A stretch of 64,000 nt of DNA from Thalassotalea hakodatensis (GTDB lineage Bacteria > Pseudomonadota > Gammaproteobacteria > Enterobacterales > Alteromonadaceae). Below the pieces are notes generated by a model. It worked only from the letters and a program-made list of their open reading frames with translations. It made no database searches and was not told the origin of the DNA. The DNA is taken from the NCBI RefSeq assembly GCF_030295995.1, contig NZ_AP027365.1, forward strand, positions 2,450,066 through 2,514,065, written 5' to 3'. Shown here in pieces: positions 15,170 through 37,747 of the stretch. Each line of letters starts with the position of its first letter. Positions within the stretch are counted from its first letter, which is position 1. Both the position numbers and the translations under genes were made by a program.

Positions 15170-16117
15170 CTATGAGTATTCAAAAGGTTGATGACTATTA
15201 ACCGATGACAATAGCTGCTCAGCTAATGATGAATTGCCTTGGTATTGACTATCACCCTGAGGCTGTTGTCGACTGCCCACTAAACGATGCTCACAAACGG
15301 AATTAAACACTGCTTTTATATCGTCCGGTAAAACATGATCACGTTGATGAATATATGCCCACGCTTTAGCTGCAGCTATAAGCGATTTACCTGCGCGAGG
15401 CGATAATGGATTCACTGATAAGTTGGTATGTCGAGAACGTTCACATAATGCGACCACATAATCAATTAACTCATCAGCGACATAGACTATGTTTACCTCT
15501 TCTTGAATGGCCGCTAACTGGGTTAAATTAATACATGCAGGCAGTTGTTCAAACAAGCGCGCATTATCTCCTTTTAATATCGCCTTTTCTGATGCACGAT
15601 CTGGAAAGCCTAACGATATTTTCATCATAAAGCGATCAAGTTGAGATTCTGGTAGGGGGTATGTACCCGCATGAAAAAGTGGGTTTTGAGTAGCAATAAC
15701 AAAGAATGGTTCAGGTAACTCATAGGTGACACCATCAACACTAACGCGATTTTCTTCCATCGCTTCTAACAATGCACTCTGCGCTTTTGGGCTGGCGCGG
15801 TTTATTTCATCAGCAAGTACTACTTGATTAAATAAAGGCCCTTTGTGAAACGTAAACGCAAGTTGTTGTTGATCGAATATTGAAACACCAATGATATCTG
15901 CCGGTAACAAATCACTGGTAAATTGCACACGTTGATAGCTTAATCCTGAGGTACTTGCTAATACGTGCGCCAATGTAGTTTTACCCATTCCAGGTAGATC
16001 TTCAATCAGTAAATGCCCTTTTGCTAACAAACACGCTAACGAGAGTTTTACTTGTTCAGGCTTTCCAATCACAACACGTTCAATTTGCGCAATGATGTTT
16101 TCAATATAATCTGACAT
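15170..16117 (-). CDS. MoxR-family AAA+ ATPase
   Basis: This 315-residue AAA+ chaperone-like ATPase has Walker A PGMGKTTL at about 42-49, Walker B VLADEINRA near 105, the QNP sensor 1 (FFVIATQNP), and the lid segment with SPRAGKSLIAAAKAWA. MoxR proteins couple ATP hydrolysis to maturation of partner proteins; here the partners should be the DUF58 and transglutaminase proteins encoded next in the operon. The C-terminal 25 residues are polar and Gln/Ser-rich. Confidence 0.93.
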   Translation of the reverse strand: MSDYIENIIAQIERVVIGKPEQVKLSLACLLAKGHLLIEDLPGMGKTTLAHVLASTSGLSYQRVQFTSDLLPADIIGVSIFDQQQLAFTFHKGPLFNQVVLADEINRASPKAQSALLEAMEENRVSVDGVTYELPEPFFVIATQNPLFHAGTYPLPESQLDRFMMKISLGFPDRASEKAILKGDNARLFEQLPACINLTQLAAIQEEVNIVYVADELIDYVVALCERSRHTNLSVNPLSPRAGKSLIAAAKAWAYIHQRDHVLPDDIKAVFNSVCEHRLVGSRQQPQGDSQYQGNSSLAEQLLSSVNSHQPFEYS

Positions 16118-35410: not shown

Positions 35411-35636
35411 TGTGTATAACCCAACTTAACACACACATTTTGACTTAAAACACTGGTTGAACAAAAATAGCACAACAAGGCTAACGAACAACAAGAAAAA
35501 CATATAACATATTGTTTAATAATGATTATTAAAAAAATAACAATTATTTACCACCGACAAAAAACTAAGTATACGTCAATGAAAACGTTTTATTACACTT
35601 TCATCCACGTAGTTATCCACAGTTTTGGTGGATAAC
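35411..35636. promoter_or_regulatory. DnaA-box cluster in a gene-free AT-rich region
   Basis: Between the MATE gene and tRNA-Asn (35263-35826) there are two perfect DnaA boxes: TGTGTATAA at 35411-35419 (minus strand TTATACACA) and TTATCCACA at 35613-35621. A third, TTATCCACC, lies inverted at 35627-35635, and TCATCCACG at 35601-35609 is a poorer match. Boxes two and three form a perfect 9-bp inverted repeat GTTATCCAC-N7-GTGGATAAC. The surroundings are very AT-rich. No dnaA, dnaN or gidA is near, so a titration or reactivation locus (datA/DARS type) is likelier than an origin. The rest of the gap shows nothing else. Confidence 0.45.
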
Positions 35637-35759
35637 TTCAATTTAATAAACACTTACAATTGATTGCAGAAAGCTTCACCGATCGTTGATGTCAAATCAG
35701 CCAGACTGAGCGGAAAACGAGCAAACGATCCATGAAATCAAATTTTTCTTCATTTTGGG

Positions 35760-35788
35760 TTGACACACCGACTAGCTGCCATTAATAT
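35760..35788 (+). promoter_or_regulatory. Sigma-70 promoter of the tRNA-Asn genes
   Basis: Perfect -35 TTGACA (35760-35765), 17-base spacer, -10 TAATAT (35783-35788), then a GC-rich discriminator (CCGCCCC). The first tRNA-Asn begins 38 bases after the -10 box. Confidence 0.8.
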
Positions 35789-35826
35789 TCCGCCCCGTTG
35801 ACGAGATACAATCTCTTAAACATGAT

Positions 35827-35903
35827 TCCCCTGTAGCTCAGCTGGTTAGAGCGGTGGACTGTTAATCCATGTGTCGTCTGTTCAAATCAGACCAGGGGAG
35901 CCA
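35827..35903 (+). tRNA. tRNA-Asn (anticodon GTT), copy 1
   Basis: A 77-base cloverleaf: acceptor TCCCCTG with CAGGGGA, D arm TAGCTCAGCTGGTTAGAGC, anticodon stem GTGGA/TCCAT with loop CTGTTAA (anticodon GTT), T arm GTCTGTTCAAATCAGAC, discriminator G, encoded CCA. It is identical to copy 2 located 63 bases downstream and shares its promoter. Confidence 0.97.
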
Positions 35904-35966
35904 CTTATTTATATGTAATGGCACTTATTTATAAATGCGGTTACTGGCGAAAGCCAAAAGAATTAT

Positions 35967-36043
35967 TCCCCTGTAGCTCAGCTGGTTAGAGCGGTGGACT
36001 GTTAATCCATGTGTCGTCTGTTCAAATCAGACCAGGGGAGCCA
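35967..36043 (+). tRNA. tRNA-Asn (anticodon GTT), copy 2
   Basis: It is base-for-base identical to the tRNA-Asn at 35827-35903. It is followed by a terminator and is the source of the decayed tandem copies at 36117-36418. Confidence 0.97.
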
Positions 36044-36050
36044 CACAAAG

Positions 36051-36079
36051 AAAAGCTGCAATTTATTGCGGCTTTTTTT
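36051..36079 (+). terminator. Terminator of the tRNA-Asn operon
   Basis: AAAAGCTGCAA (36051-36061) pairs with TTGCGGCTTTT (36066-36076, one G-U pair) around a 4-base loop, followed by T residues to 36079. The same element is repeated at 36192-36220 and 36333-36361 within the tandem array. Confidence 0.9.
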
Positions 36080-36116
36080 ATGTCTATTTTTAGAGTTTAA
36101 GGTTATCAACTACCGC

Positions 36117-36184
36117 TAGAGCGGTGGACTGTGCTCTTGTTAAGCTCGCATGTGCCCTCTGTTTCAATCAGACCAGGGGAGCCA
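36117..36184 (+). pseudogene. Decayed tRNA-Asn fragment 1
   Basis: From TAGAGCGGTGGACTGT to AGACCAGGGGAGCCA this follows tRNA-Asn, but the acceptor 5' strand and D arm are absent, and the anticodon region is expanded by GCTCTT and changed to GCTCG. The T stem-loop and the 3' acceptor strand with CCA survive. It is preceded by ACCGCTAGAGCGGT, a small hairpin made from the surviving D-arm end. It cannot fold as a working tRNA. Confidence 0.85.
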
Positions 36185-36191
36185 CACAAAG

Positions 36192-36220
36192 AAAAGCTGC
36201 AATTTATTGCGGCTTTTTTT
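36192..36220 (+). terminator. Repeat copy of the tRNA-Asn terminator (2nd)
   Basis: It is identical in stem and loop to the terminator at 36051-36079, with seven T residues. It lies within the second unit of the tandem array. Confidence 0.8.
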
Positions 36221-36257
36221 ATGTCTATTTTTAGAGTTTAAGATTATCAACTACCGC

Positions 36258-36325
36258 TAGAGCGGTGGACTGTGCTCTTGTTAAGCTCGCATGTGCCCTC
36301 TGTTTCAATCAGACCAGGGGAGCCA
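36258..36325 (+). pseudogene. Decayed tRNA-Asn fragment 2
   Basis: It is identical to fragment 1 at 36117-36184 including the inserted bases in the anticodon region. A recent tandem duplication of the already decayed unit explains this best. Like fragment 1 it lacks the 5' half. Confidence 0.85.
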
Positions 36326-36332
36326 CACAAAG

Positions 36333-36361
36333 AAAAGCTGCAATTTATTGCGGCTTTTTTT
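36333..36361 (+). terminator. Repeat copy of the tRNA-Asn terminator (3rd)
   Basis: It has the same stem-loop as at 36051-36079 followed by seven T residues. It lies 70 bases past the stop codon of the convergent gene at 36431-37747. Confidence 0.8.
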
Positions 36362-36430
36362 ATGCCTATTTTTAGTGTAAAGGTTATCAACTACCGCTAG
36401 AGCGGTGGACTGTGCTACTTTAAAAACATG

Positions 36431-37747
36431 TTACCAACCTAACTGATACAAAGGTAACGTTTCTAATCGTGCATCTATCTCTTTTAACATCTGCTGATAA
36501 TCTTGATTATTGATATCACGATACGTTTGTTCAAATTCAGCGTGGGATATCCCTTCGTCTAAACCTTCTATACTAGGGAGTAGCGTTTCATCGGTTATAT
36601 TTAATAATAAAGATTGCGCGCGCTTAGCTTTATTTTCACTTGCAACTACTATCTGGGCAAAACGAGTACCAGCCCTATCCGCCATTAAATCGGCAAAACT
36701 AAAGCCTGAACCACCTCGATTACTGTCTAAAAATTCTTTGTATTCACCAATAGCATCACTAGCTCCCAAAGTACTGAACATTTGAATAGCCATAGAATAG
36801 ACGAAATGTTTTTGTAAATCATTTCGTCCCCGCAATGTTGCGTTACTTCTCAATTTATTACGAACAACAAGCTGATCAAAATCATCATCGATGATATTTC
36901 CCACGAGTAATTCAAAACGATCAGCACCAAAATAAATAATAAGTGCCATCGCTGCAGACTGGTTTTGTACAGTGGTATTGGTATTAGCTATTGAGTTAGA
37001 TCGCTGACTGGCAAGCGAAAATACTTCTCTAACATACCCAGCCAATGAAGCATTTGATTGTTGTTTTGCTGCATATTGAGCAATCGATTGATAATAAATA
37101 GCAATTTCCTTGGCGTTACCAAATAGCGATAAGTCATCTCTTAAGCGCATTAACAATGATTTATCATTATTTCGTGCCAGTAAACGCGTATCAAAGTACA
37201 TATCAAACTCAACAAATGATTCACTGATAGACACACGTTTAATAATCGCCAACATATCATCAACTAGATTCGGCTGAATGAAAAAATCAGACATCAAACG
37301 CACCAAGGTAATAAAATGATGCCCGGCTAATGAAAGATGACCTATATTAACTTGTTCAATCATTAGCCCACGTTCAGAAGGCAACACCTTTATAGATACA
37401 TTAAGGTATTTAATTAATTCAGGTAATGGCAAGGTCACTGACAATGAAGCATTTAATGCTTTGGGGGTTAGCGTTACATTGGCTGCAGATTGTGGCACAG
37501 CACGATGTAACAGTGCTGCTAAACCGTCTAGTTCATCTTTAGTTATTCGAACTTGTTGTTGTCCCTGCTGTTTAGCGCTAGTAATTAATTTTTTAACTAA
37601 TTGTTGACTTTGCTTAGCTTTTTGCGCGGAAATTTGATGAAGCTGAACAGTTTTAGGCTGGGTTTGCAAAGACAACAATACAAGTGCACAAAAGGCAAAA
37701 ATAAAAATAAACGTAAAAATAACAAAACAACGAAAGAGAGTTTTCAA
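36431..37747 (-). CDS. Membrane-anchored protein of unknown function
   Basis: A 438-residue protein with one N-terminal membrane helix (about 8-28, IFTFIFIFAFCALVLLSL) and a large probably periplasmic part. Residues 40-160 look beta-rich (NVTLTPKALNASLSVTLPLPE), the rest helical. A GSGFSFADLMADRAGTRFA stretch near residue 350 is reminiscent of peptidase-like or TPR proteins but I cannot name a family. The 3' end abuts the decayed tRNA array, whose last unit is cut 13 bases before this stop codon. Confidence 0.75.
   Translation of the reverse strand: MKTLFRCFVIFTFIFIFAFCALVLLSLQTQPKTVQLHQISAQKAKQSQQLVKKLITSAKQQGQQQVRITKDELDGLAALLHRAVPQSAANVTLTPKALNASLSVTLPLPELIKYLNVSIKVLPSERGLMIEQVNIGHLSLAGHHFITLVRLMSDFFIQPNLVDDMLAIIKRVSISESFVEFDMYFDTRLLARNNDKSLLMRLRDDLSLFGNAKEIAIYYQSIAQYAAKQQSNASLAGYVREVFSLASQRSNSIANTNTTVQNQSAAMALIIYFGADRFELLVGNIIDDDFDQLVVRNKLRSNATLRGRNDLQKHFVYSMAIQMFSTLGASDAIGEYKEFLDSNRGGSGFSFADLMADRAGTRFAQIVVASENKAKRAQSLLLNITDETLLPSIEGLDEGISHAEFEQTYRDINNQDYQQMLKEIDARLETLPLYQLGW

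What the first reader, a model, noticed from the sequence alone, without database searches (positions are those of the whole stretch)
35987..36418. Tandem decay array of tRNA-Asn 3' half plus terminator
Three further copies (two complete, one broken) of tRNA-Asn 3' half, CCA and terminator follow the intact gene. The copies lack the 5' half but share the same insertions, and each starts with a hairpin ACCGCT-AG-AGCGGT made from the D-arm end. The repeat is not simple slippage of the whole gene. It may be a scar of repeated integration or excision at the tRNA 3' end, or a source of tRNA-derived small RNAs with terminators.
Basis: partly seen in the sequence, partly recalled or inferred. Interest (0 to 1): 0.55.

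Follow-up and report, generated by a model that had tools for sequence, protein, structure and literature searches.

The report
tRNA-linked repeat array after tRNA-Asn
Behind two normal tRNA-Asn genes this marine bacterium carries a short row of partial tRNA copies with transcription stop signals; nine of its other 26 tRNA loci carry similar partial copies, and they resemble the poorly understood tRNA-linked repeats of E. coli more than scars left by integrating elements.

Summary
After two intact tRNA-Asn genes (35827-35903, 35967-36043) come two complete 141-bp units and a broken one; each complete unit ends in a tRNA-Asn 3' part with CCA (last 19 nt identical) and carries a terminator hairpin. 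It is no isolated scar: by one fixed test 10 of 27 tRNA loci of this genome carry same-strand copies of an upstream tRNA's 3' end (19 copies), as do 7 of 20 stretches of a congener and 10 of 20 of another genus, against 0 of 18 of a third genus; opposite-strand hits 0. E. coli tRNA-linked repeats (TLRs) have this plan and no known function (PMC8144298). Pro, Lys and Tyr loci here carry TLR-like cores; the Asn array lacks the core and has a longer tRNA piece and a terminator per unit. Complete units number 0, 1, 2 and 5 in four genomes of the genus; units are 96-99% alike within the two arrays compared there and 72-79% between species. The nearest integrase match is 94 kb away. Most likely a core-less TLR array shaped by recombination among repeats; transcription and function are untested.

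The parts
35827..35903 (+). intact tRNA-Asn(GTT), first copy
   Evidence: ARAGORN; Rfam tRNA 67.3 bits; promoter-like TTGACA-17-TAATAT at 35760-35788
35967..36043 (+). intact tRNA-Asn(GTT), second copy, next to the units
   Evidence: ARAGORN
36048..36079 (+). terminator-like hairpin T1
36044..36184 (+). unit 1, CCA to CCA, 141 bp: trailer, T1, spacer, small hairpin, tRNA-Asn 3' part with insertion in the anticodon region, CCA
36112..36125 (+). hairpin ACCGCT-AG-AGCGGT of unit 1
   Evidence: sequence; a stem in the predicted fold of the unit (stretch 36080-36221)
36166..36184 (+). last 19 nt of unit 1, identical to the last 19 nt of tRNA-Asn
36189..36220 (+). terminator-like hairpin T2
36185..36325 (+). 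unit 2, CCA to CCA, 141 bp, 99% identical to unit 1
36253..36266 (+). hairpin of unit 2
   Evidence: sequence
36330..36361 (+). third copy of the terminator hairpin with T7
   Evidence: sequence; not listed by the rule-based scan
36326..36416 (+). broken third unit: trailer, terminator, hairpin 36393-36406, then the array stops before the convergent gene
36431..37747 (-). convergent gene (438 aa; weak DUF2279 match, 17.8 bits, below the cut-off of 28.6) whose stop codon lies about 15 bp from the array

Best explanation
The array is a set of TLR-type repeats (tRNA-linked repeats) behind the tRNA-Asn operon. A tandem duplication with one end inside the tRNA and the other beyond the terminator made a unit that ends in the tRNA 3' end, CCA and trailer (inferred). 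Unequal recombination between the intact 3' half and the units changes copy number and keeps an array uniform (supported by comparison). RNA polymerase that reads through T1 would transcribe a unit lying between two terminators, and the copied tRNA 3' end would serve as its 3' processing signal, as reported for E. coli rrB; a small RNA coupled to tRNA output would be released (inferred by analogy, not shown). What such RNAs do is unknown in E. coli too.
For: Fixed test (last 15 nt of a tRNA, at most 1 mismatch, outside tRNA genes): 10 of 27 loci here (19 copies), 7 of 20 stretches of G003 (20), 10 of 20 of G104 (16), 0 of 18 of G006; in the stretches scanned every 3' copy lies downstream of a cognate gene on its strand, and opposite-strand hits are 0. 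Pro, Lys and Tyr units share a core; model R1, built from Pro and Lys, finds the Tyr unit (48 bits) that was not used to build it. E. coli repeats behind Tyr, Arg and Lys tRNAs carry a similar CGGCCCGAAGGG core and 18-19 nt of the local tRNA. R1 matches 88 of 138 family genomes; 13 of the 20 best loci hold a copy of a local tRNA 3' end. Asn units: 99% alike here and 96-99% in G003, against 72-79% between species of the genus; the unit-specific insertion is shared by two genera; the 25 nt after CCA match those of the intact gene at 25 and 25 positions here and at 24, 25, 25 and 20 in G003.
Against: No transcript data. The Asn units lack the canonical TLR core: R1 has no match in the window, and R1 also misses the E. 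coli tyrTV repeats at E up to 1. Strong terminators should leave distal units nearly silent, and no promoter-like site lies in the units. The unit bodies of six genomes show no common predicted fold. The Asn unit pattern is in only 5 of 395 family genomes. The two G104 units are only 91% alike, and units of the other genus are 38-54% alike between its genomes, so uniformity is clear only in two arrays.
Confidence: 0.62

Rival explanations
1. Inert by-product: tRNA 3' ends and terminators are tandemly duplicated by recombination and persist neutrally; no RNA has a role.
For: Complete units vary from 0 to 5 among congeners, last units are broken, units are alike within an array; no promoter-like site in the units; no shared fold of the unit body.
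Against: The Asn unit type with its own insertion is shared by two genera, and His units by the same two, although loss of all units by recombination should be one-way (inference).
Confidence: 0.28
2. Terminator battery: extra terminators insulate the tRNA-Asn operon and the convergent gene from each other.
For: Three copies of one terminator hairpin between convergent genes, with the convergent stop codon about 15 bp from the array.
Against: Val, His, Pro and Leu arrays in the same genome show no such hairpin in their trailers (by eye); on the minus strand one stem pair becomes a C-A mismatch (by eye); it does not explain the copied tRNA part.
Confidence: 0.07
3. Scar of repeated integration and excision at the tRNA 3' end.
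For: tRNA 3' ends are common integrase targets (general knowledge); in G073 an integrase frame starts 0.5 kb upstream of the tRNA-Asn cluster.
Against: Nearest integrase-domain match here is about 94 kb away; the duplicated stretch extends past CCA into terminator and spacer; the same type of copy stands at many tRNAs; no integrase-like island was seen in the few kb read around the locus in G002, G003 and G004.
Confidence: 0.03

Closest known systems
tRNA-linked repeats (TLRs) of E. coli K-12, including RttR/rtT behind tyrTV (Egan and Landy 1978, Rudd 1999, as cited in PMC8144298)
   Same: units behind a tRNA gene on its strand, 1-5 per locus, last 18-19 nt identical to the upstream tRNA; tandem period 178 bp at tyrTV against 141 bp here
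   Different: Asn units lack the CGGCCCGAAGGG-like core, include more of the tRNA (from the D-stem end, with an insertion), and carry a terminator hairpin per unit
E. coli rrA, rrB, rrF (TLRs of rRNA operons, PMC8144298 abstract and passages)
   Same: unit lies between two terminators behind a stable-RNA gene, so expression would depend on read-through
   Different: those copy the 5S 3' end, one per operon, and are shown to be transcribed and to bind Hfq and CsrA; nothing of that is shown here
RtT-family RNAs Arrc20 and Arrc21 of Actinobacillus pleuropneumoniae (PMC4986893, passages)
   Same: RtT-family RNAs next to tRNA-Asn and tRNA-Lys genes, seen on Northern blots
   Different: reported upstream of the tRNA genes, with predicted promoters of their own; sequences not compared here
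3'ETS-leuZ (as described in the introduction of PMC8144298)
   Same: RNA cut from a tRNA transcript
   Different: pairs with the sRNAs RyhB and RybB; no tRNA copy is mentioned there

Membership tests
tRNA-linked repeats (TLR) | lies in a tRNA or rRNA operon, directly downstream of the gene | tested here: met
tRNA-linked repeats (TLR) | 18-19 nt at the unit's 3' end identical to the upstream tRNA | tested here: met
   19 nt in both complete units
tRNA-linked repeats (TLR) | one to five units per locus | tested here: met
   2 complete + 1 broken here; 5 in G003; 1 + broken in G004
tRNA-linked repeats (TLR) | canonical core before the tRNA tail (my own criterion; the paper's hallmark is the 18-19 bp tail) | tested here: not met
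   model R1 has no match in the window at E up to 1 while it hits the Pro, Lys and Tyr loci; R1 also misses E. coli L105, so it is not a full TLR test
tRNA-linked repeats (TLR) | transcribed and processed near the copied 3' end | not testable with these tools
   no RNA data held
Rfam RtT family | reaches the family model | tested here: not met
   no RtT match in 35500-37000 at E up to 10, nor in 12 other tRNA stretches, Pro, Lys and Tyr included, at E up to 0.05
integrative element scar at tRNA 3' end | integrase gene or remnant beside the att copies | tested here: not met
   nearest of 8 integrase-domain matches (PF00589, E up to 1e-5) is about 94 kb away
integrative element scar at tRNA 3' end | repeat limited to the tRNA att core, with element DNA between copies | tested here: not met
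   the repeat is a 141-bp tandem unit including terminator and spacer

The most novel reading that the evidence does not exclude
Core-less TLR-type arrays have arisen at many tRNA isotypes in one lineage (here Asn, Val, His, Leu-TAG, Leu-TAA, Arg and Met: 7 of the 10 positive loci) beside canonical TLRs. If these are independent births, the copied tRNA 3' end, not the core, is the feature that is selected: a portable processing end that turns the trailer of a tRNA operon into stable small RNAs tied to tRNA output.
Probability: 0.2. Interest if true: 0.62.

Novelty: new variant of a known kind. Interest (0 to 1): 0.4.

Why it matters
TLRs were first described in 1978 and the 2021 paper read here still gives them no known function. 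A genome with 19 such copies at 10 loci, core-bearing and core-less side by side and with copy number differing between congeners, makes the question testable: which part is conserved, which is expressed, and what removal does. It also warns against reading truncated tRNA copies as integration scars.

Tried and rejected
Integrase scar: rejected (surroundings). Rfam matches of the units other than tRNA: all below the curated scores, taken as chance. Conserved fold of the Asn unit body: not found among 7 units of six genomes. Plasmid search: 403 records, none with one place covering 80% of the query; best rows cover 16-33% of it; not followed up. Strict His pattern over 247 genomes of the order: only this genome, although a looser DNA search finds His units in G003, G004 and G073. 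R1 as proof of homology with E. coli: it does not match L105 at E up to 1, so that link rests on plan and a short core. Single-sequence folds of the Pro, Lys and Tyr cores show four hairpins, but their z-scores are modest (-1.3 to -3.3) and the E. coli unit shows only two of the hairpins (z -0.4).

Papers: 10 searches used (one search was an error). The TLR paper PMC8144298 turned up; of it I saw the abstract, the introduction and matching passages, not the whole text. Of PMC2965389, PMC4986893 and PMC11623569 I saw passages only. Rudd 1999, Egan and Landy 1978 and Bosl and Kersten 1991 were not read.

Limits of counts: the row list was cut, so the tRNA clusters of G003, G104 and G006 are those listed. 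From these I took 20 of 22, 20 of 27 and 19 of 22 clusters (the last as 18 stretches). G000 is complete for (27 loci, 70 genes over the cut-off). The test misses more degenerate copies. One search prints 60 rows because five Val copies appear twice; 55 are distinct, and 29 of these have a copied trailer (18 or more of 25).

Full report
What is there. The window lies in a 4.28-Mb genome that is not named to me; the two relatives of the neighbouring gene found in named contigs (98% and 93% identity) are Thalassotalea. Two intact tRNA-Asn(GTT) genes, 35827-35903 and 35967-36043, are followed by a terminator hairpin and then by two complete 141-bp units and a broken one. Read from CCA to CCA, each complete unit holds trailer, terminator hairpin, spacer, a small hairpin, and a tRNA-Asn 3' part that starts at the D-stem end, has an insertion of about 11 nt in the anticodon region and an altered T-loop, and ends in 19 nt identical to the tRNA. 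The array stops about 15 bp before the stop codon of a convergent gene. No promoter-like site was found inside the units on either strand.

Relatives. Of five genomes of the genus, this one has 2 complete units, G003 has 5, G004 has 1 plus a broken one, G002 has none but four intact tRNA-Asn genes, and the same-species genome G001 breaks at contig ends inside the array. Units are 99% identical within this array and 96-99% within that of G003, 91% between the two units of G104, 72-79% between species of the genus, 38-54% between genomes of the other genus, and 38-63% between the two genera. The unit-specific insertion (GGACTGT-ACTGTT-like) matches in 5 of 395 family genomes, in two genera, and aligns across them. 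The 25 nt after CCA agree with those after the intact gene at 25 and 25 positions here and at 24, 25, 25 and 20 in G003. In the genus this looks like concerted evolution by recombination among repeats. In G004 a 1.2-kb insert with 25-bp inverted ends and a probable 9-bp target duplication (by eye) sits inside the terminator of its unit; three of its short frames have no Pfam match.

Not an isolated case. All 27 tRNA loci of this genome (fetched, plus the window) were scanned for copies of the last 15 nt of a tRNA (at most 1 mismatch) outside tRNA genes. 10 of 27 loci have them, 19 copies. In G003 it is 7 of 20 stretches, 20 copies; in G104, of another genus, 10 of 20, 16 copies; in G006, of a third genus of the family, 0 of 18. 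Opposite-strand hits: 0 in all four. In the stretches scanned every 3' copy lies downstream of a cognate gene. Copies of tRNA 5' ends also occur (4, 3, 3 and 0 stretches; 7, 5, 8 and 0 copies), all but one upstream of a cognate gene; the exception is a Glu copy in G003. A tandem duplication with one end inside the gene would give this polarity (inference). His units also occur at the tRNA-His locus of G003, G004 and G073, with different copy numbers.

Known kind. At three of the ten loci (Pro, Lys, Tyr) the copies are preceded by a related core of about 73 nt, predicted to form four hairpins with modest z-scores. The E. coli K-12 tyrTV repeats, which include the annotated sRNA RttR, and repeats found by the same kind of scan behind E. 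coli Arg and Lys tRNAs have a similar CGGCCCGAAGGG core and 18-19 nt of the local tRNA. Of 10 E. coli regions fetched, 4 have such copies (13 copies); the region with four tRNA-Asn genes has none. Stenum et al. 2021 (PMC8144298; abstract, introduction and passages seen) call these tRNA-linked repeats: 22 at ten loci, 1-5 per locus, 18-19 bp at the 3' end identical to the upstream gene, no known function; [quoted passage not shown] A covariance model of the Pro and Lys cores (R1) finds the unused Tyr core (48 bits) and a weak match (20 bits) behind a second tRNA-Tyr, but nothing in the window, nothing at the other core-less loci and nothing in the E. coli tyrTV region at E up to 1. It matches 88 of 138 family genomes, up to 25 per genome; of the 20 best loci 16 hold a tRNA gene and 13 a copy of a tRNA 3' end (12 exact nt), at Lys, Pro-TGG, Pro-GGG and Arg-ACG.

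Reading. The Asn array meets the published TLR hallmarks that could be tested (place, 18-19 nt identity, number), lacks the core seen in the E. coli and Pro/Lys/Tyr repeats, and has a terminator hairpin in each unit. I therefore file it as a core-less variant built like a TLR, not as a canonical TLR. Shown: anatomy, distribution, uniformity within two arrays, no integrase nearby. Inferred: birth by tandem duplication, read-through transcription, tRNA-like 3' processing, any function. The predicted folds of the unit bodies do not agree among six genomes, which speaks against a conserved RNA structure; one hairpin pair changes on both sides between G000 and G073 by eye, too little to count.

Integration scar. 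Integrase-domain matches in this genome number 8 (PF00589, E up to 1e-5); the nearest to the array is about 94 kb away. An integrase remnant at 2099141-2099467 of the genome lies next to a tRNA-Met cluster, not here. In G073 a 492-aa integrase frame starts 0.5 kb upstream of the tRNA-Asn cluster, on the 5' side.

Novelty. The kind is known. A core-less, terminator-bearing type was not found described in the ten paper searches made (listed in Tried and rejected), which is weak evidence because most subscription papers are not held.

Noticed in passing
L086 2990-3242 (G000:C1 about 1346590): Three copies (period 116) of the first 21 nt of tRNA-Ser(GGA) upstream of the intact gene, each followed by sequence that by eye could close a new acceptor-like stem.
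   Followed up: partly
L100 1071-2249, between two tRNA-Arg 3' copies: A 392-aa frame that looks like an IS4-type transposase (by eye, no family search) sits in the terminator of a tRNA-Arg unit with a 9-bp duplication; with the G004 Asn unit a second insert in such a terminator.
   Followed up: partly
G104:C1:1868682-1869047: Five matches of the TLR core model at 72-nt steps near tRNA-Ser(GGA).
   Followed up: no
G104:C1:11927, 513037, 1776745: TLR core matches 3.6-3.8 kb from single tRNA genes at 15819, 516684 and 1772850 (probably Ala, not fetched), possibly behind rRNA operons as in E. coli.
   Followed up: no
L072 and L045 (G104, G030) between intact tRNA-Asn genes: Degenerate tRNA-Asn copies that keep the 5' half and lose the acceptor 3' strand alternate with intact genes.
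   Followed up: partly
G000:C1:2099141-2099467: Integrase-domain match with two stop codons inside, about 0.8 kb downstream of the tRNA-Met cluster.
   Followed up: no
window 35512-35536: Inverted repeat (12-nt arms, 92%) in an AT-rich stretch upstream of the tRNA-Asn operon.
   Followed up: no
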